Below are positions 1,016-39,550 of a DNA stretch of 40,519 nt, piece by piece. Position 1 is the stretch's first letter. The number at the start of each line of letters is the position of its first letter. The DNA is from a virus. A program made the translations under genes and the position numbers. Under the pieces are notes generated by a model. The model was not told the origin of the DNA and did no database searches. It was given only the letters and a program-made list of their open reading frames with translations. Where the stretch lies: positions 1-40,519 of IMG/VR virus record IMGVR_UViG_3300025865_000005. One strand, written 5' to 3'.

Positions 1016-3258
1016 GCGGATGCTCCTTGGTCCTGTGCGATCTCGTAGACCACGAGGCATCTGCAGCGGTCGCCACCCTCGCAGTCCGGGTTTGGCGTCC
1101 AGCTCTCGGCCAGCGTCAGGTCCGTTGTGGTGTCACCGTCCTGTGCACCACAGGGGTCGCATGTGGCGCCATCGAGCAGCGCCGAGTACGCGGCGTCCTC
1201 GATCTGTTGCGCTTGCGCCTGCGCCTCGTCTGCGCGGCCGAGCTGCATGAGGTCGGAGACGATGCCCGCGAAGCGCAGGGCGGCGGCGTCGGACTCGCGC
1301 ACGATGGCCGTCGCGAGTCCGGCCTCGTCGACCGGCACGCCGCTGGCCAGGCGCGCAGCGGCAGCGGCGGCGGCGGCCTGAGTGGCGGCGGCAAGACTGC
1401 GCGCAGCCATCTCGGACTGCTGCGCGATCGCTGCGTCCTTGGCAGCGCGCTGGGGGCTCACCTTCGGCTTCTCCGCGGCGGCGATGCGCGCGCCAACGGC
1501 GTCAGGCGTCCACGGCTTGCCGGCCTTCTGGCGCGCCAGCTCGTCGCGTACCTGCACCATGCCGGCGTCGTAGAAGTCAAGAAGCACTGCCGAGATCTCG
1601 GCGGTCAATTTGTCGACCATGGGCGGCGCGCCCGCTGCGAACTTTGGCAACTGCCCCTTGTCGGCAGCGATGCGAGCGCGCCGCCCGAGTTCGGCCGCGA
1701 GGGCGTCTCGGGTCGCCTGCGTGGCCACGCGGATCGCCGTCCGTGAGTCGTCGAAACGGGAGGTCAGCTCGGCGAGGTTCAGGTAGACCTCGACGCCACG
1801 CGGAGGGCGGAGCTCGGCAAGCTGGAGGCCGGGACCGTGAGAATGTGGTGCCTCACTGGCCTTGGCTCCGCCCTCTGGCGGCTGTCCATCGCCTGCCGGT
1901 GGCTGCGGCGGGACGACTTTGGCGGGGGTCGGAGGAATCTTCTTCGCGTCGACGACGACCTGTGCGTCTGTACCCTCTGGCATGCCAGCCTCGGAGCGCG
2001 CCCACTCCTGCACCTCGGGGGACAACGTGGGGAACGCCTGGGAAAACCACAGCAGGGCCTGCGCGAAGGACTTGAGGTCGACGGCCTGCACGTTGCCGAA
2101 ACGCAGCTTGGGCAGGTTGTCGTCGCGGGGGAAGTTCTCGGCAATGAGCTGGTGGATGAGCCCGCCGCGGGCGTTGAGCACGTCCTCGCGGCCCTTGGCC
2201 TCAGCCTGGATGCCGTTGTTGAACAGGTCGGAGAGCGTCGTGCCGAGGGCGCGGCTGCCGGAATTGCTCGTGCCGAGGTCGAAGACCTGAGCTTGGCAGA
2301 CAGAGGTGATCTCGGTGTCACGCTGCTTGATGGCTTCGAGGATGTCCGAGATGTTCGCATTGCCGGTGAGCAGCGTGATCCGCGTGTCGGCCGTGTGGCG
2401 GAAGAAGGCGTCAGGCGTGAGCCCGAAGCGGCGCCCCATGTTGTCGAGCTTGGCCGCGGTTTCGTTGTCAGGCTCGTCGTCGGTCTCGATGTCAGGCACG
2501 CCGCCGAGCTTGCGGGCCATGATCGGCAGCTCGATCTCGAGCTCCTCCTTGATCTTCCAGGGCTTGTACATGGGCCGCATAATGGAGCGGCCGGTGAACG
2601 AGTCGCCCTCCTTCTGGTGGGCGAACCAGACGATCTTCTCGCCGGGGATTACGCGCTCGCCGCCGTCGATCGGACGCTGCACGACGTGATCTATGGCGCC
2701 ATCTTTGACGTGGATGTCCTCGACCCAGATGGACGAGGCGGGGCGCAGCGCCAGGCGGCAGCGCGCCTCGCCGTCCTCGATCCGCCAGACGATCTCGAAG
2801 CATGAGAAGCCGTAGTCGAGGGACAGTAGGGAGTCCTGCAGGAAGCTGCGCCAGGGGAAGTCGTTCAGCAACAGGCGCTCGGCGAGTTCTGCCTTGGCAG
2901 CGGCGTCGGGGTTCTCAACCACTCCCTGCGCGTTCTTAGCTCCGCCGGGGGCAGGCTCCATGTGGGCCTGCGCCTGCAGCATGGGCAGGTTCTGGGCCTG
3001 GCGCAGGCCCCAGATGTGGGGGTCGCTCCAGCGCATGCGCCGGTAGAGCGTGCCGCCCTGACGACCGCGCAGTTCGTACTTGTACTCGGGGTCGATGAGG
3101 CTGGCCGTGCCGTCATTGGAGGTCGCGTAGGAGACGGAGTTGGAGCCGCGCTCGGTGGTGTCCGTGCCCTTGCCGCCCTCGGTTAGAGACAGCGAAGCCG
3201 GGCGTTCAGAGCTGAACGCCCAGCGAGCCGCAGCAGTGATGCGGTCGGTGATGGCCAC
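1012..3258 (-). CDS. Portal protein (DUF935, Mu gp29-like) fused to MuF-like minor head protein
   Basis: Protein of 748 residues with a GTG start. Residues ~40-460 look like a DUF935 portal: RMRWSDPHIWG, a DYGFSCFEIVW segment, PGEKIVWFAHQ and GRSIMRPMY. A Pro/Gly-rich linker (~450-490) follows. The C-terminal ~250 residues look like a MuF head-morphogenesis protein, ending in a cysteine cluster (GATCDPCGAQDG, then DCEGGDRCRC). The portal forms the dodecameric DNA gate at one capsid vertex, and MuF proteins bind its inner side. In Mu these are two genes, so a single reading frame is notable. No strong ribosome site is visible at GTG 3258. The stop overlaps the protease start. Confidence 0.88.
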   Translation of the reverse strand: MAITDRITAAARWAFSSERPASLSLTEGGKGTDTTERGSNSVSYATSNDGTASLIDPEYKYELRGRQGGTLYRRMRWSDPHIWGLRQAQNLPMLQAQAHMEPAPGGAKNAQGVVENPDAAAKAELAERLLLNDFPWRSFLQDSLLSLDYGFSCFEIVWRIEDGEARCRLALRPASSIWVEDIHVKDGAIDHVVQRPIDGGERVIPGEKIVWFAHQKEGDSFTGRSIMRPMYKPWKIKEELEIELPIMARKLGGVPDIETDDEPDNETAAKLDNMGRRFGLTPDAFFRHTADTRITLLTGNANISDILEAIKQRDTEITSVCQAQVFDLGTSNSGSRALGTTLSDLFNNGIQAEAKGREDVLNARGGLIHQLIAENFPRDDNLPKLRFGNVQAVDLKSFAQALLWFSQAFPTLSPEVQEWARSEAGMPEGTDAQVVVDAKKIPPTPAKVVPPQPPAGDGQPPEGGAKASEAPHSHGPGLQLAELRPPRGVEVYLNLAELTSRFDDSRTAIRVATQATRDALAAELGRRARIAADKGQLPKFAAGAPPMVDKLTAEISAVLLDFYDAGMVQVRDELARQKAGKPWTPDAVGARIAAAEKPKVSPQRAAKDAAIAQQSEMAARSLAAATQAAAAAAAARLASGVPVDEAGLATAIVRESDAAALRFAGIVSDLMQLGRADEAQAQAQQIEDAAYSALLDGATCDPCGAQDGDTTTDLTLAESWTPNPDCEGGDRCRCLVVYEIAQDQGASA

Positions 3259-3309: not shown

Positions 3310-4878
3310 CTAGAAGCCGCTCGGACGACTGCCTGACATGTTCGTCGAGATGCCGCCGCCAGAGGACGCTCCTCGGCGCCGGCGGTAGCGACAGATGTGC
3401 CAGTAGCGAAGCGCGTCGAGGGGATGCGAGTAGACCTTGTGGTCGGTGTCGTAGATGTTGTCGTCGTTACGATGCGGTTGGACGTTCGCGAGGGCCGCGA
3501 TCAGGCCGGCGCAGCGCGGGTGAACGATGAGGCGCTTCTGCGTGTCCTCGATGGCAACTCCGGACTCGTCGCCGATGGACTCCATCATCAGTGTCACGCC
3601 GTCGTTCACCTTGCTGGGCTTGCCCTCGCAACGCATGCCGAGGTCGCGGAAGACGTCAAACTCGCTACGCTTCGTCTGCGTGTTGCGATATCTGCCGGCG
3701 GGGTCGGAAAAGGGGCCGCGGACCTTGACGCCGAACTTGTACCGCGCCAGCCTCGCGAGGATGCCCTCTCCAAAGTCAGTGGTGCGCGGCTCGTCGACGG
3801 GCAGGTACTCATCGAAGACGAAGGGCTGGCCCGAGGGAGATATCTGCAGGAAGAGCGCGGCCGGGTGCGCGAGCCCCCAGTCGACGCACGTCTCTGTTGC
3901 CCAGCCCGGCACGACGTCGAACTCGCGCACGTTCTGCGCCCGCTTGAAGCACTTGAAGAAGGCGCCTTCACGGGGCCGGAAGACGTCGGTGATGTCGCGT
4001 GCCAGCTCACGGGCTGCGAGGTCGGGGTCGGCCGCCTCGTCGACGTTCTGCCGGAACCACTCGTCGTCGCGCCGCGGGTCTGCGGTCGCGGACACGAAGT
4101 GAGACCGCCACTTGCCCTTGCCGCCCTCCGCGTTCTTGAAGAGCGTGGCAAAGTCGTCCGCGTCGCCGTCGCCGGTCGAGACCACGTGCACCCGGTGGGC
4201 GCCATGCTCGAGCGCGGCGAGCTGCTGCATTGGCCATGGCCAGGAGGCGAACTCGTCGCAGAGAGTCCAGTAGGCGGCGTCTCCGCGGGCGATGTGGCGC
4301 GTTGCCGTTTTGGTCTGGAAGCGGCTGCCGTTCTCCAGCGTGATGCTGGTGGTCGTCTTGCCGACGATTGTCGGTCGCCAGGCATCCATCGCCGCGGGCG
4401 ACCCAGGCAGCACGGCCATGTGCGGCGGGTCGGTGTTGGCGTCGTAGCCCATGAGGATCAGCAGGCGGCGAATCGCGTCCTTGGCGTCGTCGCCGGACTG
4501 ACGGGCGATGTTGAAGAGACGGTTTCCGCCGACGATGCCGGCGTGCAGCATGGCTGCCAATTCGAGCCAGGTGATGCCGATCTGCCTGCCCTTGGGGACC
4601 ACGAGGAAGCGCTCGCGCTCGATCACCCCGAGGGCGACTCGTTGGTCAGGCCACAGGTGGAAGGGGATGAGGCCGACCTCGGTCGCGCCTTCCTTCTCGA
4701 CGATCAGGCAGGACTCGACGAAGTCCTCGACCGGGATAGGCCCAACGTGGCGGTTTGATCCGACCAGGGGCTCGTCGATGCGCGCCGCGAGCTCCTGGAC
4801 GACCTGCTCCTCGGGCATCCGGGCGACGACGCGCTCGATCCTACTGCGCAGATCCTCGCGTGATTGCGTCAGCTTCAC
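3310..4878 (-). CDS. terL: Terminase large subunit (packaging ATPase/nuclease)
   Basis: Protein of 522 residues. GRQIGITW at 97-104 is the Walker A region of the form common in Mu-like terminases (GRQxGIT/SW, without the usual lysine). YWTLCDEFASW around 203-213 is the Walker B with Asp-Glu. The nuclease domain begins at CVDWGLAHPAALF near 331, with Asp333 a likely metal ligand, followed by a VFDEYL strand. It drives DNA into the prohead and cuts the concatemer. The GTG start at 4878 lies 38 bases inside terS, so translation is probably coupled. A slightly later start is possible. Confidence 0.92.
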   Translation of the reverse strand: MKLTQSREDLRSRIERVVARMPEEQVVQELAARIDEPLVGSNRHVGPIPVEDFVESCLIVEKEGATEVGLIPFHLWPDQRVALGVIERERFLVVPKGRQIGITWLELAAMLHAGIVGGNRLFNIARQSGDDAKDAIRRLLILMGYDANTDPPHMAVLPGSPAAMDAWRPTIVGKTTTSITLENGSRFQTKTATRHIARGDAAYWTLCDEFASWPWPMQQLAALEHGAHRVHVVSTGDGDADDFATLFKNAEGGKGKWRSHFVSATADPRRDDEWFRQNVDEAADPDLAARELARDITDVFRPREGAFFKCFKRAQNVREFDVVPGWATETCVDWGLAHPAALFLQISPSGQPFVFDEYLPVDEPRTTDFGEGILARLARYKFGVKVRGPFSDPAGRYRNTQTKRSEFDVFRDLGMRCEGKPSKVNDGVTLMMESIGDESGVAIEDTQKRLIVHPRCAGLIAALANVQPHRNDDNIYDTDHKVYSHPLDALRYWHICRYRRRRGASSGGGISTNMSGSRPSGF

Positions 4879-7543: not shown

Positions 7544-8080
7544 TCACACCAAAACCCCGGCAAAGTCCATCGGGTGCTTGGCTCCCTTGGACAGGTTGCA
7601 GTGTGAACACGAAACCACGATGTTCTCTGGTCCGTTGCCACCGCCAAGGAACAGCGGGATAACGTGATCGACGTGCTTCTTGCGCCATGCGACCTTGGCC
7701 CCACACCAATAGCAGCGGCCCTTCTGGCGGTCGTACTGCGCGCGGGTGTCGGCGGCGGTGTGCGTGCCCTCGGCGCCGAGTTTGCGCGCCTTCCTGCATC
7801 GTTGCCGGGTAGCAAACTCGGCCAAGTGGCCAACGTGATAGGCGCGCGACCGCTCCGCTATCTTCTCTCCATTGAGCTCACGATACCGACGGTTGGCTTC
7901 ACACCGCTGTTCCCGGTGTTTCCGGTCGTAGGATCTATGGACCTCGGCAACTTTGTCAGGGTTCGCTTCCCTGTAGAGATGGCCGTATTCCGCGCTGGCC
8001 GCCCGGCAGAGATGGCACCGGCATTTGACGGTGTTGTAGCGACGCATTGTCCCGTGCGCTCTGAGAAGGTCAACTATCAC
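7544..8080 (-). CDS. HNH endonuclease, copy 1
   Basis: Zinc-binding HNH nuclease with the motif set RCYWCG, HVDHVIPLFLGG, SCSHCN and a PMDFAG ending. The C-terminal ~60 residues are closely similar to the protein at 24599-25141, and the N-terminal zinc-like segment (CRCHLCRAASAEYGHLYR) also matches. Start: GTG 8080 is preferred because the shared 5' element lies 23 bases upstream of both this codon and the start of copy 2. An in-frame GTG at 8140 would add 20 residues that overlap candidate attP arm sites. It could be a homing endonuclease or, given its place before terS, a packaging-associated HNH protein. Confidence 0.82.
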   Translation of the reverse strand: MIVDLLRAHGTMRRYNTVKCRCHLCRAASAEYGHLYREANPDKVAEVHRSYDRKHREQRCEANRRYRELNGEKIAERSRAYHVGHLAEFATRQRCRKARKLGAEGTHTAADTRAQYDRQKGRCYWCGAKVAWRKKHVDHVIPLFLGGGNGPENIVVSCSHCNLSKGAKHPMDFAGVLV

Positions 8081-8103
8081 GCGCCGAGCGTACCGACAGG
8101 CGT

Positions 8104-8117
8104 TGTTGGAGGAGGGA
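8104..8117 (-). promoter_or_regulatory. Conserved element upstream of HNH copy 1
   Basis: On the minus strand this reads TCCCTCCTCCAACA, located 23 bases before GTG 8080. Close matches occur 23 bases before the HNH copy 2 start (25165-25180) and 24 bases before ATG 24544 (24569-24582). The element is pyrimidine-rich and anti-Shine-Dalgarno-like. Its role (leader, translational control or recombination scar) is unknown. Confidence 0.4.
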
Positions 8118-8130
8118 GAGGGCACGGGAG

Positions 8131-8149
8131 ATGTGCCCACTATGTGCCC
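8131..8149. promoter_or_regulatory. Candidate integrase arm-type sites, left side of attP
   Basis: ATGTGCCC occurs at 8131-8138 and 8142-8149, 11 bases apart (about one helical turn). The same word with one more matching base, ATGTGCCCC, recurs at 8365-8373 on the other side of the tRNA-like core. Direct repeats flanking a core are the usual design of arm sites bound by the N-terminal domain of tyrosine integrases. Assignment is by pattern and context only. Confidence 0.45.
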
Positions 8150-8380: not shown

Positions 8381-9535
8381 TCAGACTTTCTGCGAAAGTC
8401 GCTTCTGCAGGCTCGCCGCCGCCGGGCCCTGGACGGCCAGTTTGGAGTGCAGATAGCCCTCCGTCGTCTTCATGTCGGCATGCCCCTGACGGTCACGGAT
8501 CGTGAGCGGGTCAATGCCGTCGTCGCGCAGCCAGGTGGCGTGCGTGTGGCGCAGGGTGTGGAAGTCGGCGTCCTCGATGCCGAACTCCGCGAGCAAGTCG
8601 GCGAAGTGGTGCGTGAAGGTGTCCGGGCAACGCCGCTTGCCGTGCTTGCCCGGGAACACCCAGCCCTCGCTGTTCCATCCCCGCTCGCGCAGGGACCGCT
8701 CCTTCTGGCGCAGCCGCACAGCGCGTAGCTCATCCACGGCATCCGGCGGCAGCAGGACCGGCCGCACCTCCTCACCCTCTGCCTTCGTCGGTTTGAGGAC
8801 AGGCCCATATCCCTTCCTCTGCACGAGATTCCAGCGAGCGTATAGGGCGCCGGCCTTGAAGTCGATGTCAGGCCACCTCAGGGCCAGCACTTCGCCGCGA
8901 CGCAGGCCAGCAGACAACCCGGTGAGCGCGGGCCCGTAGAGGTCGTCACGCTCGCCACCCTTGCGCTTGGGCACCTTGGCGCGGGCAGCAAGGGCACCGT
9001 CCAGGATCTTCCTGACTTCCTTCACGGACAGCGACCGCCGCGGATGCCCGGCCCGCGGCTTCCTGCTCTTCACGGCCTCGGCGGCGTTCCACTCGAGGCG
9101 ACGGGTGCGCACGCCGAAAGACAGCACGGAGCGCAGGCAGGAGAGGTGATGCTCGACGGTCATCGCGGCCAGGCCGGCGCGTCGCTTGGCGGCCTTGAAG
9201 CGCAGCACGTCAGTTGGCCCGATGTCTGCGGCGATGTCCTTGCCGAAGTACGGCACGACGTGCTTGCGCAGGATCGACTCATAGCCTGTCTGCGTGGTCG
9301 GCGAGAGCTCTGCCATGTGGAGATCTCGGTAGTCGTCGACGAGCCGCTCGAAGGTCTCGCCGGAGTAGGTGCGCTGGCCGCGCCGCTTGATCTTGGCTGC
9401 GAGCTGCTTCCGGGCTTCGCGGACGGCGACGCGCTCAGTACGCCCGATCGCATTCGCCCGCACCCTCCGGGCTCCACTACCCTCCGACTCGAACGCCCGC
9501 CAGCGTCCGTCCGGCAGCTGCGCCGTCCACCCCAT
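8381..9535 (-). CDS. int: Tyrosine recombinase integrase
   Basis: Protein of 384 residues. An N-terminal arm-binding part is followed by a SAM-like core-binding domain (~55-150) and the catalytic domain (~165-384). Catalytic residues are visible: Arg212 in AGLRRGE, His326 and Arg329 in FHTLRHTHAT, His352 in GHADMKTTEGY and the nucleophile Tyr361. It would integrate the phage at a host tRNA-Arg(ACG) gene through the adjacent attP. The ATG at 9535 has no Shine-Dalgarno sequence but a TACACT hexamer 6 bases upstream, pointing to a leaderless mRNA. It follows the early operon after a 33-base gap. Confidence 0.95.
   Translation of the reverse strand: MGWTAQLPDGRWRAFESEGSGARRVRANAIGRTERVAVREARKQLAAKIKRRGQRTYSGETFERLVDDYRDLHMAELSPTTQTGYESILRKHVVPYFGKDIAADIGPTDVLRFKAAKRRAGLAAMTVEHHLSCLRSVLSFGVRTRRLEWNAAEAVKSRKPRAGHPRRSLSVKEVRKILDGALAARAKVPKRKGGERDDLYGPALTGLSAGLRRGEVLALRWPDIDFKAGALYARWNLVQRKGYGPVLKPTKAEGEEVRPVLLPPDAVDELRAVRLRQKERSLRERGWNSEGWVFPGKHGKRRCPDTFTHHFADLLAEFGIEDADFHTLRHTHATWLRDDGIDPLTIRDRQGHADMKTTEGYLHSKLAVQGPAAASLQKRLSQKV
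8384..8400 (-). terminator. Hairpin at the 3' end of the integrase gene
   Basis: Perfect 7-bp stem (GACTTTC/GAAAGTC) with a 3-base loop, overlapping the last integrase codons. No T-run follows on the minus strand, so it is at best a weak terminator or an mRNA 3'-end stabiliser. It could separate integrase transcription from the late genes. Confidence 0.35.
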
Positions 9536-17166: not shown

Positions 17167-18020
17167 GACCGCGCCTGCAGGTATTGCAGCGCCGCCTGCG
17201 CCTGGCCCATCGTCAGATTCTGCAGCGTCGGCGCCCCCACGGCGTCGCACACGGCGGCCAGCAGCTCGCCCTCGTCGGCGCCTTCGTTGATGGCCTTGTT
17301 CCAAGCGTTGTCCAGCAGATTCTGCCGCGCCGGGGTCACCGGGTCGGTGGTCTTCACGAGAGGGCCGCGGCCGGGGACGTCACCGTCGTCGATTGCGGCG
17401 TCCTCCAGGAGCCCGCCCTGCGCCTCGTCACTGCCCTTAGGCGTGGCGACGCCTTCTAGGGACCTCTGTGTGGCCGTGGTCGGCGTTTCCGCGTTGCCAT
17501 CTGCGGCCACTTCGCCGGTCACGGGGTCGACGTTTGCCGGCGCGCTGTCGCTGCCGCTGTTCCGCGTTGGATGCAGCACCTTGTGGATCGGCTTGCGCTT
17601 CTTGCCGCCCTTCATCTTGAGGACGATCTCCACGGGGAGGTCTCTGTCGAGCTCGGGCCCGCCGGCGACCCTCACGGATGGCTTGCCGAGATACTTGCCC
17701 GCCACCTCGCAGGGCTCTTGCTGGACGAGCGCCTTGCGGCCGAACCACTGCTCGTAGTGCGGCGTTCCGAACAGCGCCTCGAGCAGCTCACAGTTGATGA
17801 CGTTCGCCACCCACTCGGTCTTCAGGAGGTCCTCGATCTTCCCCGTCTGCGGGTTGCGGTGCTGGCCCTTGAAGGTGATCGCGATCTCCTTCTTGATCTT
17901 CTCGTTGTCGTCGAGCATCTCTTCGCCCTTCACCTCGACGATGGTGATGAGGGCGGGGCCTGTCTCCAGGTCTTCGGGAGAGAGGAAATTGCTGCCTCTC
18001 AGGCTTCTCCAGTCAGTCAT
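17163..18020 (-). CDS. Recombination-module protein, putative ssDNA-binding
   Basis: 285 residues. The N-terminal ~130 residues (FLSPEDLETGPALITIVEVKGEE, KKEIAITFKG, TEWVANVINCELLEALFG, QWFGRKALVQ, GKPSVRV) match a phage family usually found beside exonuclease and RecF-like genes and often described as a single-strand-binding-like OB-fold protein. A disordered linker (~155-225) and a C-terminal helical domain (LLDNAWNKAINEG, then TMGQAQAALQYL) follow. It fills the place where RecT or Bet would be expected but lacks RecT motifs. Function inferred from context. Confidence 0.6.
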   Translation of the reverse strand: MTDWRSLRGSNFLSPEDLETGPALITIVEVKGEEMLDDNEKIKKEIAITFKGQHRNPQTGKIEDLLKTEWVANVINCELLEALFGTPHYEQWFGRKALVQQEPCEVAGKYLGKPSVRVAGGPELDRDLPVEIVLKMKGGKKRKPIHKVLHPTRNSGSDSAPANVDPVTGEVAADGNAETPTTATQRSLEGVATPKGSDEAQGGLLEDAAIDDGDVPGRGPLVKTTDPVTPARQNLLDNAWNKAINEGADEGELLAAVCDAVGAPTLQNLTMGQAQAALQYLQARS

Positions 18021-18823
18021 GGTGTCTCCAGTTCGTCATCGTCGTCCCAGAGGTCCCAGGGCGGCAGGTTGAGCTTGCTGCGCCCCGAGAACTGCCCTGG
18101 CCACGTGTCGGTGCGCAGGCACTGGGCAAGCTGATCGTGCAGGCGGCGGTCGAGTTGCTGTGCTGCGTCGAGCTCGGCGCCGACGATCTCGATCACCCGC
18201 ACGTCGGCGACGTCGGTGTTCTCGACGGCGATGATCAGAGCGTCGTAAGGTACGCCGGTCTCGACGTACATCCCGCCGGCGTAGTCGATGAGCTGGCCGT
18301 GGTAGCAGTAGCGGCCAGCCGCGCGCCCGAACCCGTTGTCGCTGATGTCCGCGGCCGTCTTGAGGTCAGTGACGATGTGGAGGTCAGGCGCTGTGACCCA
18401 GTCCATCCGGGCCTTGCGCTTGATGCCGGTCTCCGGGTCGGTCCACGTGACGACCTGCTCGGCCTGCCCCGGGAGCGCGAGCACCTCGGCCGCGTCAGGG
18501 TCAGAGCGCACGGCCTCTGCGATGCGGAGCGCGTTCTCCCGCTCGGCCGGCTTCATGATCTTCTCGGGATCGTGCGCGGCCTTGAACGCCTTCCAGTCGT
18601 TGCTGTTGCGGTTGAGGTCGCAGACGACGAACTCGGCGTCGAACAGCTCGGGCTCGAAGACGGCGGCGTGCACCTGTCGTCCGAGCACCGTCGAAGGCGT
18701 GTCAGGCCGGTGCGTCTGTGAGCGAACCTTGTAGTGAAGGAAGCTGGTCTTCCCCTCCCTGAGGTGCGACCAGCGCACGCCGGACACGTCCACGTACTCG
18801 GCGTAGCTCATGCGTTGGATCAT
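18017..18823 (-). CDS. RecE-like/exonuclease VIII-type PD-(D/E)XK nuclease
   Basis: 268 residues. An early SHLREGKTSFLHY helix and GRQVHAAVFEP (His52) are followed by the nuclease core: Glu122 in QVVTW context, ARMDWV (Asp141) and TDLKTA (Asp153-Leu-Lys155), the PD-(D/E)XK signature. YCYHGQLIDYAGG is the following helix, rich in conserved aromatic residues. It should degrade one strand of double-stranded ends to feed the recombination system with the neighbouring ATPase and ssDNA-binding protein. ATGA overlaps are present at both ends. Confidence 0.85.
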   Translation of the reverse strand: MIQRMSYAEYVDVSGVRWSHLREGKTSFLHYKVRSQTHRPDTPSTVLGRQVHAAVFEPELFDAEFVVCDLNRNSNDWKAFKAAHDPEKIMKPAERENALRIAEAVRSDPDAAEVLALPGQAEQVVTWTDPETGIKRKARMDWVTAPDLHIVTDLKTAADISDNGFGRAAGRYCYHGQLIDYAGGMYVETGVPYDALIIAVENTDVADVRVIEIVGAELDAAQQLDRRLHDQLAQCLRTDTWPGQFSGRSKLNLPPWDLWDDDDELETP

Positions 18824-20070
18824 GAGGCCACCAGCCCGTCTTCGATGACGACGCCGCAGGTGCCGGACTCGTCGACGCGCTCGATCCAGACCTGGAAGTC
18901 GTGCTCGGCGGCCATCTCGTTGATGAGCGCCATGTTCTCGGCGTCGAGCAGGGAGCCGTCGGTGATGCGGATGACGCGCAGCTGCGGGTTCATGGCCATG
19001 GCGAGCGCCAGCGAGACGCGCAGCTGCTCGCCTGAGCTGGCCTGGCAGAACGGCACGCCGTTGTAGGTCACGCCGCCGTCGCCGAACGAGAGGCCGGCGA
19101 TGGGGAACTTGGCGGCGGCGAGGCCGTCTGCCTTGCGCTTGTCCAGGACGGCGATCTCGCCCGTCTTGGCCTCGTAGGCGGCCCTGAGCGCATCGGCTGA
19201 TGCCTGCGCGGCACGGTACTGCGCCGCCTCCCGAACGGCCGCGTTCGTCTCTTCGATGGTGGCGAGGCGTTCCTTGATCGGCGCGAGGTCAGGCGCCGCT
19301 CCTAGCGCGACGAATGCCTGCCGGGCCTCACCGACTGCGGTGGTGGCCGAGGCCTGCCGGGCCTGCTGCTCCAAGAGCGCCCGCTGTGCCAGCTGCACCG
19401 AATCGGACGCAGCACGCTCCGTCTCGACGGCGGCCTGCATCCGGCGCTCTACGTCCGCGCGCCGCTGGATCTCCTGCTGCGCCGCGTCGTACTCGACGAG
19501 GACGCTGGTGGTCGAGGTCTCGTCAGCCGGCAGACCAGCCGCCGGTATGGGCAGCGACTCGGAGGCACCCTTGGCGCGAGCGAGATCCTGCCCGATTGCG
19601 TGGCGATCGTCGTAGAGCACCTGCCGCTGGCCGTCGAGCTCGTCCGGCTTGAACGGCAGGTCGACGAGGCCGAGCAGCGTCTGTACCTGCTCCCGGTCGC
19701 CCTGCTGCGTGAACGCCAGCGGGTCGAACGAGAGGTACCCGAGCAAGGCATCGAGCAGTTCTTGCGGACGCTGCCGTGTCGCTCCGTCGGCACCTTCTAC
19801 GAGCAGCGAGGTCTTGTCGCCCGCCCACTTGCGGGTGACAACGAGGTCGCCGAGGTCGAGGCGGACGCGGCCGGCATCCTCGCCGTCTCGAACCGGCCGC
19901 GGCGTGGTCTTGCCGGCGGCCTTCCAGTCGAGCGCCATCCAGATTGCGTCGAGCACGGATGACTTGCCCTGGGCGTTGCGGCCGGCGACGATCTGCACCG
20001 CGCCGTCCGGGGTGATCTCGACGGCCTTCAACCTCTTGATGTTCTGGGCTGTCAGCTTGATGATCTTCAT
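18820..20070 (-). CDS. SMC/RecF/SbcC-like ATPase
   Basis: 416 residues. Walker A is AGRNAQGKSSVLDAI (29-43), typical of RecF/Rad50 proteins. The middle (~185-320) is coiled coil (VEYDAAQQEIQRRADVERRM and later repeats). The ABC signature is SSGEQLRVSL (345-354). The Walker B is unusual (VIRITDGSLLD, ~367-377) in having Asp-Gly rather than Asp-Glu. A single chain with one short coiled coil suggests a compact Rad50-like partner for the adjacent nuclease. First large gene of the early operon. Confidence 0.85.
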   Translation of the reverse strand: MKIIKLTAQNIKRLKAVEITPDGAVQIVAGRNAQGKSSVLDAIWMALDWKAAGKTTPRPVRDGEDAGRVRLDLGDLVVTRKWAGDKTSLLVEGADGATRQRPQELLDALLGYLSFDPLAFTQQGDREQVQTLLGLVDLPFKPDELDGQRQVLYDDRHAIGQDLARAKGASESLPIPAAGLPADETSTTSVLVEYDAAQQEIQRRADVERRMQAAVETERAASDSVQLAQRALLEQQARQASATTAVGEARQAFVALGAAPDLAPIKERLATIEETNAAVREAAQYRAAQASADALRAAYEAKTGEIAVLDKRKADGLAAAKFPIAGLSFGDGGVTYNGVPFCQASSGEQLRVSLALAMAMNPQLRVIRITDGSLLDAENMALINEMAAEHDFQVWIERVDESGTCGVVIEDGLVAS

Positions 20071-21304: not shown

Positions 21305-21333
21305 ACGCTATACCACGTGGCGCTCTATGTCAA
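21305..21333 (-). promoter_or_regulatory. Early promoter for the minus-strand operon
   Basis: TTGACA (21333-21328) is followed after 17 bases by TAGCGT (21310-21305), or after 15 by TATAGC. Either gives a sigma-70-type promoter; the TTGACA box is perfect. The spacer contains CCACGTGG (21313-21320), and a partly palindromic CTGATATTCAG (21337-21347) touches the -35 side. Both are operator candidates. This promoter could drive 21255 down to about 9.6 kb. Confidence 0.6.
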
Positions 21334-21343
21334 CATCTGATAT

Positions 21344-21550
21344 TCAGGGTGACAATTTCCTGTCATCTCTGAGTTCCATGACGATGCTGCGCCAGAGCTT
21401 GTGGTAGCCATTCCGCGTCTCGTAGGAGAGCAGGTAGCCGTCCTTGACCCAGCGAGCGATGGTTGTCTCGGTGACCTCGAGGATGCCGGCGGCTTCTCGG
21501 TAGGTGATGCACTCCTTGCCGCGCGGCCGAGCTCTCTTTCGTGGTGCCAC
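21344..21550 (-). CDS. Small helix-turn-helix protein (MerR/excisionase-like)
   Basis: 68 residues from GTG 21550, preceded by AAGGAGG. ECITYREAAGILEVTETTIARWVKDG is a clear MerR/Xis-type helix-turn-helix, and YLLSYETRNGYHKLW reads as the wing. The small size fits an excisionase or a compact repressor/activator. It lies between the divergent lipoprotein promoter and the early promoter, the usual place for a control gene, and is the best candidate switch protein in the genome. Confidence 0.72.
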   Translation of the reverse strand: MAPRKRARPRGKECITYREAAGILEVTETTIARWVKDGYLLSYETRNGYHKLWRSIVMELRDDRKLSP

Positions 21551-21635: not shown

Positions 21636-21647
21636 CCCCTGATGCTC

Positions 21648-21676
21648 TTTACTCTACCTCGCGCGGTGCCGATAAT
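21648..21676 (+). promoter_or_regulatory. Promoter of the lone plus-strand gene
   Basis: TTTACT (21648-21653), a 17-base spacer, then GATAAT (21671-21676). This is among the most consensus-like sigma-70 promoters seen in the window. It would start transcription near 21683, giving a short leader with GAGGAGGGGGC as the ribosome site before ATG 21709. Confidence 0.65.
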
Positions 21677-21708
21677 ACTCCCCAAGGGGCAACGTCTGAG
21701 GAGGGGGC

Positions 21709-22092
21709 ATGAAGTACGTCCGGGGATTCCTGATCGTCGCGCTCGCGCTCGCGGTGTTGGGGCTCATCGCCTGCGGCAGCGACACGAGTACCAGTCCTGC
21801 GCCGACCGACGCGAAGGGCAAAGAGGCCGTCGCCTTGGTGTCCGTTGCCGCGAAACGTCTGGCCGTCATTACGAGACAGACTACGGCCGGCAACATCGCG
21901 GCGGCGACGAAGGGCTGGAACAAGCTCAGGAGCATCTACCCGCCCAGCGACGACACCTACATGGTCATGCTCTGCAGCGACTACCAGACCTACGCCTACG
22001 CGGTGCGCGACTACATCGCGGGCACGGGGACGCTGCAGAGCGTCCAGGACGTGGCCTCGACGGTGAGCACCGACCTGCTGGCCATGCAGTAG
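21709..22092 (+). CDS. Secreted lipoprotein, candidate lysogenic conversion/superinfection-exclusion gene
   Basis: 127 residues with a signal peptide (Lys2/Arg5, hydrophobic 7-21) and lipobox LIAC, the lipid-bearing cysteine being Cys22. A short Ser/Thr/Pro linker is followed by a helical domain (VALVSVAAKRLAVITRQTT to ATKGWNKLRSIYPP) with a second cysteine (MLCSDYQTYAYAVRDYIAG). It is the only recognised gene on the plus strand, with its own promoter and a terminator-like hairpin. That arrangement fits a gene expressed from the prophage. Phage lipoproteins can block DNA entry of related phages, so that role is plausible but unproven. Confidence 0.75.
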   Translation: MKYVRGFLIVALALAVLGLIACGSDTSTSPAPTDAKGKEAVALVSVAAKRLAVITRQTTAGNIAAATKGWNKLRSIYPPSDDTYMVMLCSDYQTYAYAVRDYIAGTGTLQSVQDVASTVSTDLLAMQ

Positions 22093-22097
22093 AGACA

Positions 22098-22134
22098 CCT
22101 GCGGCCCCAGCCAGTCACGCACCGGGGCCGCAGG
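22098..22134. terminator. Strong hairpin between convergent genes
   Basis: Perfect 11-bp stem (CCTGCGGCCCC/GGGGCCGCAGG) with a 15-base loop, between the plus-strand lipoprotein stop and the minus-strand holin-like stop. There is no T-run, as is common in high-GC genomes. It probably ends transcription from both sides. Confidence 0.6.
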
Positions 22135-22142
22135 ATCGACGC

Positions 22143-22343
22143 CTAGAACTTTGTGTTTGGCCAGAGATACTTCTTGAGCCCGTACAGGACTCCACCGATG
22201 ACGAGGATGAGCGCCGCGTTGTCGACGCCGATCTGGTGCAGGTTGTCGCCGGTGGCGAGCCAGTTCACGAGTGCCCCGATGAGCGGGAAGACCACCGTCC
22301 AGAAGGCACGGATGAGCGCCGCAATCAGCTTGGTCGTGTTCAC
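22143..22343 (-). CDS. Holin-like small membrane protein
   Basis: 66 residues from GTG 22343 with GGGGAGG 5 bases upstream. Two hydrophobic segments (IAALIRAFWTVVFPLIGALVNWL and NAALILVIGGVLYGL) and a short basic C terminus (KKYLWPNTKF) fit a two-span holin that opens the membrane for the endolysin. It is the last gene of the late/lysis strand. Assignment rests on topology and location. Confidence 0.6.
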   Translation of the reverse strand: MNTTKLIAALIRAFWTVVFPLIGALVNWLATGDNLHQIGVDNAALILVIGGVLYGLKKYLWPNTKF

Positions 22344-24598: not shown

Positions 24599-25141
24599 CT
24601 AGAAGAGCATCCCGGCGAAATCCATAGGGTGCTGAGCCCCCTTCGCCAGGTTGCACTTGGGGCAGGTGATCACGTAGTTCCCCGGGCCATTGTGAGCGCC
24701 CCAGTCCGGCCTAGAGATGGGGACTACGTGGTCGGCGTGATACCCGTTCAGAAGTTTGGACCCACAGTAGAAGCAGCGTCCGTGCTGACGCTTGAGTTGG
24801 TCTGCCTCGTCCTGCTCCGTGAAGACGCCAGGGGCACCGCGCGTTCGCGCTATCCGAGCACGGTGGTGTTTGCGCTCCATGTCGGGGTGTGCCGCTCGGT
24901 ATCGCCGCCGGTTTTTCCGCAACCGCTTAGCGTGATTCTGATAGTAACGTCGCTCTTTCTCCCGTTCCTTGCCTCGCCGCTCGGCACGATAGCGCCGGTC
25001 ATACTCGAGTTGAGAGGCCCTGCAGGAAGAACAATTGCAGCCAAGGTGCTTGGACCCCCAGGCGTTCGGCGAGCCGTGGGTGCGCGTGAGATCGACACGG
25101 ATGGACGAACGTGAGCGGGTGCTAGACGGGGTGAGCGCCAT
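24599..25141 (-). CDS. HNH endonuclease, copy 2
   Basis: 180 residues from ATG 25141. N-terminal CNCSSCRASQLEYDRRYR is followed by a long basic helix (~60-105) and the nuclease: RCFYCG, HADHVVPISR, TCPKCN and PMDFAG. It is paralogous to 7544-8080; the last ~60 residues are near-matching. A free-standing HNH gene between lysis genes, with no role in lysis, looks like a mobile homing endonuclease. Confidence 0.88.
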   Translation of the reverse strand: MALTPSSTRSRSSIRVDLTRTHGSPNAWGSKHLGCNCSSCRASQLEYDRRYRAERRGKEREKERRYYQNHAKRLRKNRRRYRAAHPDMERKHHRARIARTRGAPGVFTEQDEADQLKRQHGRCFYCGSKLLNGYHADHVVPISRPDWGAHNGPGNYVITCPKCNLAKGAQHPMDFAGMLF

Positions 25142-25881: not shown

Positions 25882-26628
25882 CTACCGCTCCACCCGAATG
25901 AAGGAATCGGCCAGGCCGGCGTCGTGCAGGTCGTGGTACACCGTGCCGCCCCAGCCCTCGTTGCCACCTACGTCCCACTCGAGGCGGCTGCCGACGCTCA
26001 CGATCCTGTCGTGAAGAGTCGTGTGGTAGGCGCCGGGCCCATGGACGATGATGTCGCCGGGCAGCAGCTCCTTGAACTGGATGCAGTGCAGGCCGTCCTG
26101 GTGGTTGCGCGCCGCCTGCAGCATGGACGGAACGAACTGCCACTTTTGCGCGTTCTTGCTGAACGCCTGGCTGCCCGCGTGGATGTATGCGAGGCTCACC
26201 TCGACGTTGCACCAGGCCATCGGTCCATGGCCCCACTCGTCTGTCGCAGGGCAGTGGTTGCTGCCGGGCGGCGTCTCGTGCTGGCCGACGGTGCCGAGCG
26301 CCCAGTGCAGCGCCTTCTCAGCCATGGTGTCCTGCGGGTGCGGCTTGCGCGATTCGGCCTGACGTGCCTTGCGCCGTGCCTCGAACGCAGGCGACAGCTT
26401 GCGGTGCCCGCTGAGAAAGTCCATGAGCTGCTGAGCGCAGAACGGCTCGAACGACGGGTAGCCGAGGTGCCACTTGGCCGCGGCGACGCGGTGCGCCGTC
26501 ACGGGGCCGTAGCCGCCGTCGACCTTGAAGCGGTAGAAGTCCCCGTAGGGGTTCTTGTGCAGGGCGGACTGCAGAGCGCGCACGTCGGCGCCGTGCATCA
26601 TCGGGTGGGTGAGTCTGAGCGTTCTCAT
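25882..26628 (-). CDS. Endolysin: peptidoglycan-binding domain plus CHAP peptidase/amidase
   Basis: 248 residues. Residues ~8-60 (GADVRALQSALHKN, GGYGPVTAHRVAAAKWHLGY) are a peptidoglycan-binding domain. Residues ~100-245 are a CHAP-like domain: MAWCNVEVSLAYIHAG with nucleophile Cys140, GDIIVHGPG near 191, and YHTTLHD (His202/206). Domain order is reversed from many Gram-positive phage endolysins, which carry the catalytic domain first. It would digest the host wall after holin opening. ATG overlaps the previous gene (ATGA). Confidence 0.82.
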   Translation of the reverse strand: MRTLRLTHPMMHGADVRALQSALHKNPYGDFYRFKVDGGYGPVTAHRVAAAKWHLGYPSFEPFCAQQLMDFLSGHRKLSPAFEARRKARQAESRKPHPQDTMAEKALHWALGTVGQHETPPGSNHCPATDEWGHGPMAWCNVEVSLAYIHAGSQAFSKNAQKWQFVPSMLQAARNHQDGLHCIQFKELLPGDIIVHGPGAYHTTLHDRIVSVGSRLEWDVGGNEGWGGTVYHDLHDAGLADSFIRVER

Positions 26629-32071: not shown

Positions 32072-32482
32072 TTAGGGCAGGCATTTGAGGGTCACGTCGA
32101 ACTTCATCACCGCGCGCGACTGCGTGAGCGGCACGATCGCCGACTCGATGCCGTCGTTCTTGTAGACCGTGTACACGCGCGGCGCCAGGAACCCCCAGAC
32201 GGCGATGGTGAGCGTGTTGCGATCCTTGGCCACCTCGGCCTCGAGGTTCGCCCAGAGGCGCTCGAGGTGCTCGGGCGCGGACTCGCCTGTCGTCTCCTGC
32301 CCGGCGAGCTTCCAGTCCTGGATGGTGACGGTGCGGAAGCCCGGCACGTAGTCGGTGGTCTCGACGGGGTACTGGGCGAGCGCGTTCGCGGAGATGCCGA
32401 CGGAGCGCGGACGGGCGCCGATGACGACGCCGGCGCAAGGGGCAACGAAGGCGCCGAGCGTGACGAGGGCGTAGTCAGCCAC
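32072..32482 (-). CDS. Distal tail/minor tail protein
   Basis: 136 residues from GTG 32482, overlapping the tape-measure stop by 8 bases. Beta-rich (DYALVTLGAFVAPCAGVVIG, YVPGFRTVTIQDW, RVYTVYKND). Being directly after the tape measure, it is in the place of the distal tail or tail-tip proteins. No sequence family certain. Confidence 0.5.
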   Translation of the reverse strand: MADYALVTLGAFVAPCAGVVIGARPRSVGISANALAQYPVETTDYVPGFRTVTIQDWKLAGQETTGESAPEHLERLWANLEAEVAKDRNTLTIAVWGFLAPRVYTVYKNDGIESAIVPLTQSRAVMKFDVTLKCLP

Positions 32483-34640
32483 GACTCATCGCCCCCTTGA
32501 GACGCATCTCGCTCATGGCGATCGGCTTGACTGTGTTCCAGAGCTGGCGGGCAGCGCGTTCGTCGGTGCCGATGAGCTGGCCAATGTGAAGGTGAAAGTG
32601 TGTCTCGCCGCCGGTACTCTGCTGCTGCCCGCGCCCGGGCAACACTTGCGCCACAACCTCGTCGTAGCGGCCCTCGCCGACGCGCAGGAGAGTGCCGCCG
32701 GGGGTGCGCCTCACGTAGGCACCAGACGCCGCGAAGTGACCGCGATAGGATCCGCCGCCGCCGGCGGGGCTTTTCAGCGCGTTTGCCACGGCGTTTCCGG
32801 CCGTCCGCGAGGCGCTTCTGACATTTCCGAGCGCTGCGCTGATTCTGCCGATCTCGTTGAGCATCTGCGTCGCGTCGAGGTTGCCCATGCGGAGATCCTG
32901 CGCGGCGCGCCTGCGCAGGATGGCGATGCGGTTCTCTACGGCGACAGCGGCCCGATTGATCTTCGGCACGAGCTGATCTTGTGGGCGCCAGTCCTGGAAC
33001 ATCTGCCCCATGAGCCGGTCGGCCTGCTTCACTGTGATGTGCAAGGCGCCCATGATGCGGTCGCGGGTGCTGCGCAGCTCTGCGTCGGTGTGAGAGCCGT
33101 CGACGTTGCCGAGCACGATCTTCTTCGCGGCCAGGTCCTGGAGCTGCCTCATCTGCAACATGGTCGAGCGAAAGGCGGCGCCCGTCTGTACGGCAGACTG
33201 CGCGCCAAGGCGATCGATTGCATCGTCGATGCTGGCCTTCGACTTCGCTGCCTCGGCGGCGAGGTCCTCGGCGATCGTGTTGTTGCCCGCGCCGCCGGCG
33301 CCGCCGACTTTCCCTGTCGCCACCTGCCCCGGCTGCACCATCTCCTGCAATTTTCTTCTGGACTCCGGCGTTGACGCCCAATTCCCTATTGCGCCCTCTA
33401 TCGGATTCGCCACGAGGTAGCCAGCGAGGCCCGCGATGATAGCGCCACCAAGGACCGCGCCGATGGTCGTGCCAATTGGCACTCCAGCGCCGCCCAACCT
33501 CGACGCCGTGAGCGCTGCGTTTCCTTTGCCGGCCCCCGCGGTTACGGCATTCGCGCCAGCACCCGAAACGGCGCCGGGAATCAGGGTCTGTGCGACGGTC
33601 TGTCCGCCGGCGGTTGTTACGAAGCCCGCGCCACCGGTCCCAGCCGCACCCGCTACGCCCGCGAGACCGCTCGCCAACTGACCGCCGGCCAGGAGGGCCT
33701 TCATCTTTCCCAATACGGTCAGCATGATGGCGAAACCCTGTGCGGCCTTGGTGACAACGAGGAAAGCGGCCAGCGCCTCTCCGATCTGTATGAGGTGAGG
33801 CGCGAGCGGCCTCACGACTGCCAGAAGTTTCTTGAACTGGGGAACGAGGTCCCTGATGATGGGCATGGCCGAGCGGCCGACTTCGACGGAGAGGCCGCGC
33901 AGGTCTACCTGCAGCAGGGCCATCTGCTTCATGTCGTCCTTGGCCTTGGCCAGCTCCGTGTTGTCCATCACTTGGCCGGTGCCCTTGAGCTGCTGATTCA
34001 GCGCGTCGAGGTCGGTAGACGAAGCGCCTATCCACTTGCTGAGGCCCATGAAGCCTTTCCCGAGGAGCTTCGCGGCGATGGCCGTCCGCTCGGCGCCCGG
34101 CGGCATCTGCGACAGCTTGGAGCGCACCTCCTCAAGCGTCTGCGCCGGAGACTGCTTTTTTATCTCCGCCATGCTGATGCCGAGCCGATAGAAGGCGTCG
34201 AGGACGGGGTTGGTCTTGCTGATGTAGTCCTTGCCAGCAGCGGCAGCCTGCGCAGCCGCCTGTGCGTTCTTGTCGTAGAAACCGCTTGCGGCGTCGATGT
34301 TCTTAGAGAGCATCACGGTTGCGGTCGTGCCGGCTTCGATGGTCACGCCGTATCGCTGCCACTGGCCGACGAGCAAGGATGCGTCGGTGGCGCTGATCTT
34401 TGACTGACGCTGCAGGTCCCCGATGGAGGACGCGAGCTGCGTATAGTCCATCACGCCCTTGGTAGCGATGCCGACGATAGCCGTGAGGCCGACGGCCGCC
34501 GCTCCCTGCGCCACCTTGAGCGCCTTGCCCATGTCGGTCTGCGTCTTCTTCGACTGGCCGCCGAGATCCGAAAGCGCCTTCTGCGCGCCCTTGGAATCGC
34601 CGCCCACCACCAAACGAAGCGCGATTGTGTCGAGGCCCAC
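32475..34640 (-). CDS. Tape measure protein
   Basis: 721 residues, the longest tail gene. The N terminus is helical and coiled (GGDSKGAQKALSDLGGQSKKTQ). A central part has hydrophobic segments (ALAAFLVVTKAAQGFAIML; IGTTIGAVLGGAIIAGLAGYLV). Helical C-terminal parts follow (MLNEIGRISAALGNVRSAS). It sets tail length and is ejected with DNA. At ~0.15 nm per residue this length would correspond to a tail of roughly 100 nm (family rule, not measured). GTG start; follows the chaperone genes. Confidence 0.88.
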   Translation of the reverse strand: MGLDTIALRLVVGGDSKGAQKALSDLGGQSKKTQTDMGKALKVAQGAAAVGLTAIVGIATKGVMDYTQLASSIGDLQRQSKISATDASLLVGQWQRYGVTIEAGTTATVMLSKNIDAASGFYDKNAQAAAQAAAAGKDYISKTNPVLDAFYRLGISMAEIKKQSPAQTLEEVRSKLSQMPPGAERTAIAAKLLGKGFMGLSKWIGASSTDLDALNQQLKGTGQVMDNTELAKAKDDMKQMALLQVDLRGLSVEVGRSAMPIIRDLVPQFKKLLAVVRPLAPHLIQIGEALAAFLVVTKAAQGFAIMLTVLGKMKALLAGGQLASGLAGVAGAAGTGGAGFVTTAGGQTVAQTLIPGAVSGAGANAVTAGAGKGNAALTASRLGGAGVPIGTTIGAVLGGAIIAGLAGYLVANPIEGAIGNWASTPESRRKLQEMVQPGQVATGKVGGAGGAGNNTIAEDLAAEAAKSKASIDDAIDRLGAQSAVQTGAAFRSTMLQMRQLQDLAAKKIVLGNVDGSHTDAELRSTRDRIMGALHITVKQADRLMGQMFQDWRPQDQLVPKINRAAVAVENRIAILRRRAAQDLRMGNLDATQMLNEIGRISAALGNVRSASRTAGNAVANALKSPAGGGGSYRGHFAASGAYVRRTPGGTLLRVGEGRYDEVVAQVLPGRGQQQSTGGETHFHLHIGQLIGTDERAARQLWNTVKPIAMSEMRLKGAMSRG

Positions 34641-35477: not shown

Positions 35478-36503
35478 TCAGGCGTAGGTCGCGTAGGCGG
35501 GGGTCGAGTTGACGAGCGTTATCGTCGCCCACTTGCTCGTCGCTGAGTCATAACGCGCGGCCCAGTCGAACGAGGCCTTGTTGCGGCGCTCGTTCTTGAT
35601 GGCGTCACCCTTGCCGCTCTGGTACTGGCAGGCAGGCATCTCGACCCACATCTGGTGCTTATAGCCGGTCACCGCGTCCTGCGAGTGCGTCATCTTCAGC
35701 TTGGCGGCGAACGTGGTGCCGGCAAGCAGCGCATCGTAGTCGACGTCGATGAGCGACCGCTTGGGGATGGAGCCGCCGAGTACGGGGATCTTCTGCTCGT
35801 AGACGATGGCGTCGGGGAAACGGCTGCCTGAGGTGTAAGCCCGCTCAGTGATGATGCCGTTCTTGATGGACCAGTCGAAGTCCTCGGTGACGGCCGAGCT
35901 CGCCAGCCACGTGAGCGCCAGCTCGCCGGCGCGCCACGGCTGCGCCGCCTCGTAGCTCGGCGTAAGCACCGGGTCGGTGAGCTTCTTCGTCACGAGGTTG
36001 AGTAGCGTGGCGGCGAACGTCTGGGCGCCGCCGTCAGCCTTGAAGGACAGCTCGTCGATGCCGATGCCTTGGGCCTTGCGGAACCCGCCCGGCGGGGGCG
36101 CATAGATGAGCTGCATGGTCTGCGGGATCTCGGTCTCGCGCCACGAGAACACGTGTCGGTGGGCGCCGGCGGGAACGGTGGCCGCGTCGGGGTCGGTGAT
36201 GGTGCCGTTGCCGGGCGTGGTCACGCACCCACCACAGGCCGCGGAGAGCAGGAGTCCGAGGGTTCCCGGGTAGCAGCGCCCATCGAGTGAGCCGCTCGGG
36301 TTGTACTCGCCGACGCCAGAGTTCGGATACTCAGCGAAGCTCCCGCGCAGCTCGTCTCCGGTGTCGAGCATCTGCGGGTCCGGGTTCATGTCGATGGTCA
36401 CGGCGGGCAGATAAAACAGGTTTGACGAGACGGCGTTGGCGCCGCCCTCGGCGTTCGGAGCCTGTTCAAGCGCCGCCTGGATGTAGCCGCCGGGAGATGC
36501 CAT
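35478..36503 (-). CDS. Major tail (tube) protein
   Basis: 341 residues, mostly beta-rich with an Ig-like feel (FAATLLNLVTKKLTDPVLTPSYEAAQPW, ELALTWLASSAV, KLKMTHSQDAVTGYKHQMWVEMP). Location between tail-completion genes and chaperones, and its size, fit the tube subunit that polymerises around the tape. The clear ATG at 36503 follows the previous stop by 2 bases. Confidence 0.75.
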   Translation of the reverse strand: MASPGGYIQAALEQAPNAEGGANAVSSNLFYLPAVTIDMNPDPQMLDTGDELRGSFAEYPNSGVGEYNPSGSLDGRCYPGTLGLLLSAACGGCVTTPGNGTITDPDAATVPAGAHRHVFSWRETEIPQTMQLIYAPPPGGFRKAQGIGIDELSFKADGGAQTFAATLLNLVTKKLTDPVLTPSYEAAQPWRAGELALTWLASSAVTEDFDWSIKNGIITERAYTSGSRFPDAIVYEQKIPVLGGSIPKRSLIDVDYDALLAGTTFAAKLKMTHSQDAVTGYKHQMWVEMPACQYQSGKGDAIKNERRNKASFDWAARYDSATSKWATITLVNSTPAYATYA

Positions 36504-38614: not shown

Positions 38615-39550
38615 TCAGCTGATGACCGTGGTGAACAAGTAGCCGGCGGCGGCACACGTGACCTTCTCGTCCGTGTAGTCGTCGACGTAGCGGGCCCAGC
38701 TGCGGTGGTCGCGGTCCTCCCAGGGCTGGCTCACCTGGAAGCGCGGGACGCCGTCGACGTCCCAGGCGATGGTGCGCATCGGCACGATCACCCGGCCGCG
38801 GTTCTCGTCCACCGACTTGGGGTAGTAGGCCCAGAGGGCGCTCTTGCCCCAGAGGTCGACGAACGTCGAACCGTTGTAGTAGGTGCCGGAGCCGACCCAG
38901 ATGCGGTCGATGCCGAGCACGCTGGCGACCTGCTCCTTCGTGGGCACACCATAGGGACCGTTCGCGCCGAAGATGGCGTTCTTGATCGCCGTGATCTGAC
39001 GCAGGTACTCCCACACCGAACCGCCGATGATGAGGGTGTTGACCTCATGTCCGGTGGTCGGCCGCACGGCCGCGTTCGCGGTCACGCGGTTGCCCCACGG
39101 GTCCGGAACGGTGGAGTCCCACCGGGCCGTGCTCGTGAGGGCGCTGGTCTGCGTGAACACGCTCGCGCTGAACGCCTTGCTCGCGACGCGGTACTCGGCG
39201 TTGACCGTGACCTCGTCGACGACCGCGGCAATCGCATCCTGCTCGGGGTCGACCATCGGGTCTGCGTTGGCGATCGACTCGACGTCGGTCAGGGCCTTGG
39301 CGCCGTAGCCCTTGCAGGTGAAGTTGTCGGTCGCGTATCCCCAGTCGACGACCTTGTACTCGTCGCGGGGCGCCCGGCTGATGTCGTGCAGCCGGTTGTT
39401 CTTGTTGGCGACCCAGTAGAGGCCGGTCTGCTTCTTGCTGCGGAGCAACGGCGCGACGAGCCCGCCGATGTATCCGTCCTTGGTGCCTGCGTAGTCGAGG
39501 GCGAACCCCGACTCCGCGACGTCGATGTGAAGATCTTCTGGACGCGGCAT
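38615..39550 (-). CDS. Major capsid protein
   Basis: 311 residues. ATDNFTCKGYGAKALTDVESIANAD, EVTVNAEYRVASKAF, SVWEYLRQITAIKNAIFGANGPYGVPTKEQ, WVGSGTYYNGSTF and a C-terminal VDDYTDEKVTCAAAGYLFTTVI match Mu-like/HK97-fold capsid proteins such as Mu gpT types. ATG 39550 follows GAGGGGTGAG. It builds the icosahedral shell. Confidence 0.85.
   Translation of the reverse strand: MPRPEDLHIDVAESGFALDYAGTKDGYIGGLVAPLLRSKKQTGLYWVANKNNRLHDISRAPRDEYKVVDWGYATDNFTCKGYGAKALTDVESIANADPMVDPEQDAIAAVVDEVTVNAEYRVASKAFSASVFTQTSALTSTARWDSTVPDPWGNRVTANAAVRPTTGHEVNTLIIGGSVWEYLRQITAIKNAIFGANGPYGVPTKEQVASVLGIDRIWVGSGTYYNGSTFVDLWGKSALWAYYPKSVDENRGRVIVPMRTIAWDVDGVPRFQVSQPWEDRDHRSWARYVDDYTDEKVTCAAAGYLFTTVIS

What the first reader, a model, noticed from the sequence alone, without database searches (positions are those of the whole stretch)
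21709..22092. Lone plus-strand lipoprotein with its own promoter and terminator-like hairpin
In a genome that otherwise reads one way, one small lipoprotein gene is opposed. It has a near-consensus promoter (TTTACT-17-GATAAT), strong ribosome site, lipobox LIAC and an 11-bp GC hairpin behind it. This is the pattern of a gene expressed in the lysogen, and small prophage lipoproteins can exclude related phages.
Basis: partly seen in the sequence, partly recalled or inferred. Interest (0 to 1): 0.6.

Follow-up and report, generated by a model that had tools for sequence, protein, structure and literature searches.

The report
Accessory lipoprotein gene in temperate phage
A soil phage with an integrase carries one small backwards-facing gene, with its own promoter, for a membrane-anchored lipoprotein; close relatives have an unrelated membrane-protein gene or nothing at that spot, so it looks like a swappable accessory gene that may protect the infected cell, though its function is untested.

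Summary
Window 21709-22092 (+) encodes a 127-aa lipoprotein with an LIAC lipobox. It is the only plus-strand frame with strong coding-like codon usage (0.55 bits per codon; next best 0.19), and the only lipoprotein-like frame in a 40.5-kb genome with a 127-bp terminal repeat and an integrase. Its promoter, TTTACT-17-GATAAT (9 of 12), is one of only two such sites in the window, and AGGAGG precedes the ATG. One correction: the 11-bp GC hairpin has no T run, ends the opposing late operon, and persists in relatives that lack the lipoprotein.

New evidence comes from relatives at the same junction. Three (L128, L124, L132) have no opposed gene. L131 has an unrelated opposed two-helix membrane protein. 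L130 keeps the same promoter/leader/ribosome site and the same 3' end, but the coding sequence between is unrelated and encodes a homologue of the L131 protein.

So this is an accessory ('moron') slot in which envelope-protein genes are swapped under a conserved expression leader. Expression in the lysogen and superinfection exclusion are plausible but untested. The mature protein has no detectable family: the PHROG 'lipoprotein' hit rests on the signal peptide. It is a new member of a known kind.

The parts
21709..22092 (+). lipoprotein gene, 127 aa: signal peptide 1-21, lipobox LIAC (Cys22), Ser/Thr/Pro linker, helical mature domain
21648..21676 (+). sigma-70-type promoter TTTACT-17-GATAAT (9/12); the same positions in relative L130 read TTGAGT-17-GATGAT
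21639..21711 (+). conserved expression leader (promoter, CCCCAAGGGGCAACGTC, ribosome site, ATG) shared with L130 although the coding sequences are unrelated
   Evidence: leader score 61 against shuffles 18.7 +/- 3.3 (max 28); coding score 40 against 40.6 +/- 7.2
21699..21704 (+). Shine-Dalgarno AGGAGG, 4 nt before the ATG
22098..22134 (.). GC hairpin, 11-bp perfect stem, no T run, between convergent genes; conserved behind the late operon in L128, L130, L124, L131 and L132 with or without an opposed gene
22143..22343 (-). last gene of the late operon: 66-aa membrane protein, holin-like by position and hydropathy only; convergent neighbour used to find relatives
21344..21550 (-). divergent neighbour: small HTH protein, weakly like excisionase/MerR
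21307..21333 (-). likely early promoter TTGACA-15-TATAGC of the leftward operon, similar in L124 and L130
   Evidence: sequence read directly

Best explanation
The gene is an independently transcribed accessory (moron-type) gene of a temperate siphovirus. It sits in a variable slot between the end of the leftward late operon and the start of the leftward early operon. Its own promoter, facing against both operons, most likely lets it be read from the prophage while the phage operons are silent. The product is exported, cut before Cys22, lipidated and held on the outer face of the cell membrane by a flexible linker that carries a small helical domain. The most likely use there is to protect the lysogen, first of all by blocking DNA entry of related phages, as Ltp does in Streptococcus. 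Shown here: the coding status, the lipoprotein signal, the promoter and ribosome site by sequence, and the presence/absence/replacement at the slot with a conserved leader. Inferred: lysogenic expression, surface location and exclusion. My estimate is about 0.85 for the accessory-slot part and about 0.4 for exclusion as the function.
For: It is the only plus-strand coding frame of the genome. Promoter and Shine-Dalgarno are rare in the window. Relatives with strongly similar flanks lack the gene: L128/L129 (flanking 66-aa protein 95% identical), L124, L132, and G004/L031 by synteny. L131 has an opposed two-TM protein at the same place. L130 has the same leader and the same 3' end around an unrelated opposed two-TM protein, homologous to that of L131 (E = 8e-7). 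All three occupants are membrane-targeted. Known parallels: genes antisense to lytic genes with their own promoter are characteristic of prophage accessory loci (PMC7067206); Ltp of TP-J34 is a lipoprotein transcribed in the prophage that stops DNA injection (PMC3952083).
Against: No transcript data exist and no host is known. The mature domain matches no known exclusion protein and the model is of low confidence (mean pLDDT 63.5) without fold matches. Base composition and codon usage are like those of the phage, so there is no sign of recent foreign origin. The promoter matches only 9 of 12 positions, and in L130 8 of 12. The host sigma factor is unknown.
Confidence: 0.55

Rival explanations
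1. It is an accessory lipoprotein expressed in the lysogen but not for phage exclusion: it alters the host envelope (surface decoy, stress tolerance, nutrient binding, adhesion or signalling).
For: The same architecture and slot evidence as for the best explanation. Lipoproteins serve many envelope functions, and moron genes of other phages affect diverse host traits (PMC7067206). No exclusion family match.
Against: Nothing specific against it. The other occupants of the slot are small two-TM proteins without enzyme or transporter features, which fits a guard role at the membrane at least as well.
Confidence: 0.33
2. It is a lysis-phase protein (a spanin-like or lysis-timing lipoprotein) that works with the adjacent 66-aa holin-like protein.
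For: It lies next to the small membrane protein that ends the late operon, with an endolysin candidate (PHROG lysis family) at 25882-26628. Rz1 spanin subunits are lipoproteins (general knowledge).
Against: Opposite strand and own promoter; absent from relatives that keep the 66-aa protein at 95% identity; 127 aa without the short proline-rich form of Rz1; likely Gram-positive-type host, where an outer-membrane spanin makes no sense.
Confidence: 0.08
3. The plus-strand transcript matters mainly as antisense RNA or as a transcriptional roadblock between the late and early operons, and the protein is secondary.
For: The gene is antisense to and convergent with the late operon, and the intergenic hairpin is conserved.
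Against: Strong codon bias and third-position G+C, a full lipoprotein signal, and replacement by another membrane-protein reading frame rather than by non-coding sequence. Relatives do without any opposed unit.
Confidence: 0.04

Closest known systems
Prophage accessory ('moron') genes, e.g. STMMW_20121 of Salmonella prophage ST64B (PMC7067206)
   Same: Single gene, opposite strand to the lytic genes, own promoter, not conserved among relatives.
   Different: Expression in the lysogen is not shown here; no dedicated terminator; composition like the rest of the phage; the leader is kept while the coding part is exchanged.
Ltp superinfection-exclusion lipoprotein of Streptococcus thermophilus phage TP-J34 (PMC3952083) and the Ltp-like gp41 of Cutibacterium phages (PMC11480721)
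   Same: Small phage lipoprotein with lipobox, probably a helical mature domain on the outer membrane face.
   Different: No sequence match to Pfam or PDB entries of that kind; lies between late and early operons, not in the integrase/repressor module; exclusion untested.
PHROG 22340 'lipoprotein'
   Same: E = 1.6e-5 over residues 1-86.
   Different: The match disappears when the signal peptide is removed, and the same profile gives weak matches (E 0.0004-0.01), mostly to its N-terminal signal-peptide part, in unrelated bacterial genomes.
Opposed two-TM proteins at the same slot in L130 and L131
   Same: Same junction and orientation; L130 shares the promoter leader and 3' end.
   Different: Unrelated protein sequence and a different type of membrane attachment.

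Membership tests
Prophage accessory (moron) gene | own promoter, separate transcription unit | tested here: met
   9/12 promoter and Shine-Dalgarno directly upstream, opposite strand; leader conserved in L130. By sequence only.
Prophage accessory (moron) gene | inserted between genes that are adjacent in relatives | tested here: met
   L128, L124 and L132 have no opposed gene between the corresponding flanking genes
Prophage accessory (moron) gene | own intrinsic terminator | tested here: inconclusive
   GC hairpin without T run, shared with the opposing operon and conserved without the gene
Prophage accessory (moron) gene | base composition unlike the phage | tested here: not met
   codon usage scores as phage-like, G+C by position 0.56/0.50/0.91; often seen, not obligatory
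Prophage accessory (moron) gene | transcribed in the lysogen and dispensable for lytic growth | not testable with these tools
   no lysogen or transcript data
Bacterial lipoprotein | positive n-region, hydrophobic core, lipobox ending in Cys within about 35 residues | tested here: met
   K2, R5, 15-residue core, LIAC with Cys22
Ltp superinfection-exclusion lipoproteins | sequence match to the Ltp domain (Pfam or solved Ltp structure) | tested here: not met
   no Pfam family at E <= 0.1, no relevant PDB sequence at E <= 10
Ltp superinfection-exclusion lipoproteins | blocks phage DNA injection | not testable with these tools
   needs infection assays
PHROG 22340 lipoprotein | match over the mature domain | tested here: not met
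   match lost without signal peptide
Rz1-type spanin | co-transcribed with or nested in the lysis genes | tested here: not met
   opposite strand, own promoter, absent from relatives with the same neighbour

The most novel reading that the evidence does not exclude
These phages keep a dedicated, reverse-facing expression slot (promoter, leader and ribosome site on one side, shared hairpin and 3' end on the other) into which unrelated envelope-guard proteins (lipoprotein or two-TM protein) are exchanged by recombination in the conserved borders. The slot would be a marker for finding unknown superinfection-exclusion proteins.
Probability: 0.3. Interest if true: 0.55.

Novelty: new member of a known kind. 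Interest (0 to 1): 0.4.

Why it matters
Most accessory genes of soil phages are unrecognised because they match no family. Here the position, orientation and a retained promoter leader point to the slot without any protein homology, and comparison of relatives gives two unrelated protein types to test for phage exclusion. If confirmed, the same comparison could be run across other phage groups to list candidate exclusion proteins.

Tried and rejected
PHROG 22340 'lipoprotein' as family: rejected, signal peptide only. NCBIfam lipoprotein and fimbria hits: far below cut-offs and N-terminal. Homologues of the protein in phage records, viral contigs and bacterial genomes: only one nearly identical virus record (99.99% over 7.5 kb), no others. 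Fold search with a single-sequence model: no match in viral or PDB libraries. Rival longer frames over the same bases (353 aa plus, 287 aa minus): negative coding scores. Hairpin as this gene's own terminator: weakened, conserved where the gene is absent. Host: not settled. The best named relatives of an early protein (18820-20070) are nearly all Actinomycetota, but the capsid protein and the 66-aa protein each hit only 1 of 396 genomes of that phylum, weakly. More slot loci: two further viral scans gave mostly loci already seen; L141, L144 and L145 start at or just before the junction.

Full report
What is there. The window is a virus record of 40,519 bases with a 127-bp direct terminal repeat, so probably a complete genome. 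Portal (1012-3258), terminase (3310-4878), tyrosine integrase (8381-9535), exonuclease VIII-like recombination protein (18017-18823), tape measure (32475-34640), minor tail (35478-36503) and major head protein (38615-39550) are all on the minus strand. It is therefore a temperate-type siphovirus read leftwards. Close relatives come from several IMG/VR metagenome records. The source (I believe Arctic tundra soil, from memory of the sample numbers) was not checked here.

The focal gene. The plus-strand frame 21709-22092 gives MKYVRGFLIVALALAVLGLIAC-GSDTSTSPAPTD.... A codon model trained on 15 homology-supported minus-strand genes scores it at 0.55 bits/codon, against at most 0.11 for the other five frames over the same bases, and it ranks first among all plus-strand frames (second 0.19). 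It is also the only frame of at least 60 aa in the window that passes a lipobox rule. The promoter TTTACT-17-GATAAT is one of two sites with 9 of 12 matches in the window, and AGGAGG-N4-ATG occurs once in the window, here.

The hairpin. The stem 22098-22108/22124-22134 is perfect, 11 bp and GC-rich, but lacks a T run and lies in the 50-base gap between two convergent genes. Folding the sequence behind the last late gene in relatives gives strong hairpins in L128, L130, L124, L131 and L132 (-32 to -50 kcal/mol), and L128, L124 and L132 have no opposed gene. The hairpin is thus a feature of the end of the late operon, which the lipoprotein gene may share.

Comparison of the junction. Relatives were found through the 66-aa membrane protein (22143-22343) and other neighbours. 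Window and G001 (99.99% identical over 7.5 kb): lipoprotein. L128/L129 (66-aa protein 95% identical): hairpin, then 130-odd bases, then an HTH gene, no opposed gene. L124 and L132: no opposed gene. G004/L031, by synteny: none. L131: an opposed 78-aa protein with two hydrophobic segments. L130: an opposed 109-aa protein with two hydrophobic segments and a CxxC-CxxC tail, homologous to that of L131 (E = 8e-7). That homology supports both being real genes; their codon scores alone are modest (0.23 and 0.08).

A retained expression leader. Between window and L130 the stretch from the promoter to the start codon aligns with score 61 (shuffles 18.7 +/- 3.3, maximum 28), and the 3' border, including the hairpin and the 22 bases GGGCCGCAGGTGTCTCTACTGC, with score 67 (shuffles 22.2 +/- 4.4, maximum 37). 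The coding parts between score 40 (shuffles 40.6 +/- 7.2) and the proteins are unrelated. The promoter positions correspond: TTTACT-17-GATAAT and TTGAGT-17-GATGAT. The simplest account is replacement of the coding part within a kept expression unit; direction and mechanism are not known, and this rests on one pair.

The protein. Only one further, practically identical copy was found. The PHROG 22340 match is lost when the signal peptide is removed. A single-sequence model is all-helical behind a flexible linker (mean pLDDT 63.5, pTM 0.52) and matches nothing. The mature part has no net charge.

How it probably works. Inference: read from its own promoter in the prophage, exported and lipidated, standing on the outer face of the membrane. 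All three occupants of the slot are membrane-bound, and known prophage proteins of this type include exclusion proteins such as Ltp, a lipoprotein transcribed in the prophage that prevents DNA injection (PMC3952083); an Ltp-like protein is also reported from actinobacterial phages (PMC11480721). Genes antisense to the lytic genes with their own promoter are described as typical of accessory loci (PMC7067206). Exclusion is the leading guess, not a result; other envelope functions remain nearly as likely.

Host. Named genomes with the nearest relatives of an early protein are nearly all Actinomycetota, headed by an Acidimicrobiaceae MAG from palsa. This suggests, but does not show, an actinobacterial host.

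Verdict. Real gene, correct observation, hairpin reassigned, interpretation partly supported. It is a new member of a known kind, made more interesting by the slot comparison.

Noticed in passing
L130 8253-8582 (-) and L131 8227-8463 (-): Small opposed two-TM membrane proteins at the same junction (L130 with a CxxC-CxxC tail), homologous to each other, weakly like PHROG 8436 of unknown function.
   Followed up: partly
window 21307-21333 (-): TTGACA-15-TATAGC next to a CCACGTGG palindrome in front of the early operon, similar in L124 and L130: likely early promoter and possible operator.
   Followed up: partly
window 21344-21550 (-), L128 8376-8609, L130 and L124 equivalents: The small HTH gene beside the slot also differs between relatives (L128 type against the L124/L130 type), so the variable stretch is wider than the opposed gene.
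   Followed up: no
window 7544-8140 and 24599-25141 (-): Two endonuclease VII/HNH-like genes 38% identical to each other over 181 residues in one genome.
   Followed up: no
window 21680-21689 and L130 leader: CCCCAAGGGG (L130: CCCCGAAGGGG) at the expected transcript start, a dyad that could be an operator or a 5' stem.
   Followed up: no
L141, L144, L145: Three further relatives' loci begin 15-285 bases before the early gene next to the slot; assembly breaks at this junction would fit strain-to-strain variation there.
   Followed up: no
L033 (G003): This 19-kb record is homologous to the window's head and tail genes only up to about 6.7 kb, with portal-like and integrase-like matches out of order after that; possibly a chimaeric assembly.
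   Followed up: no
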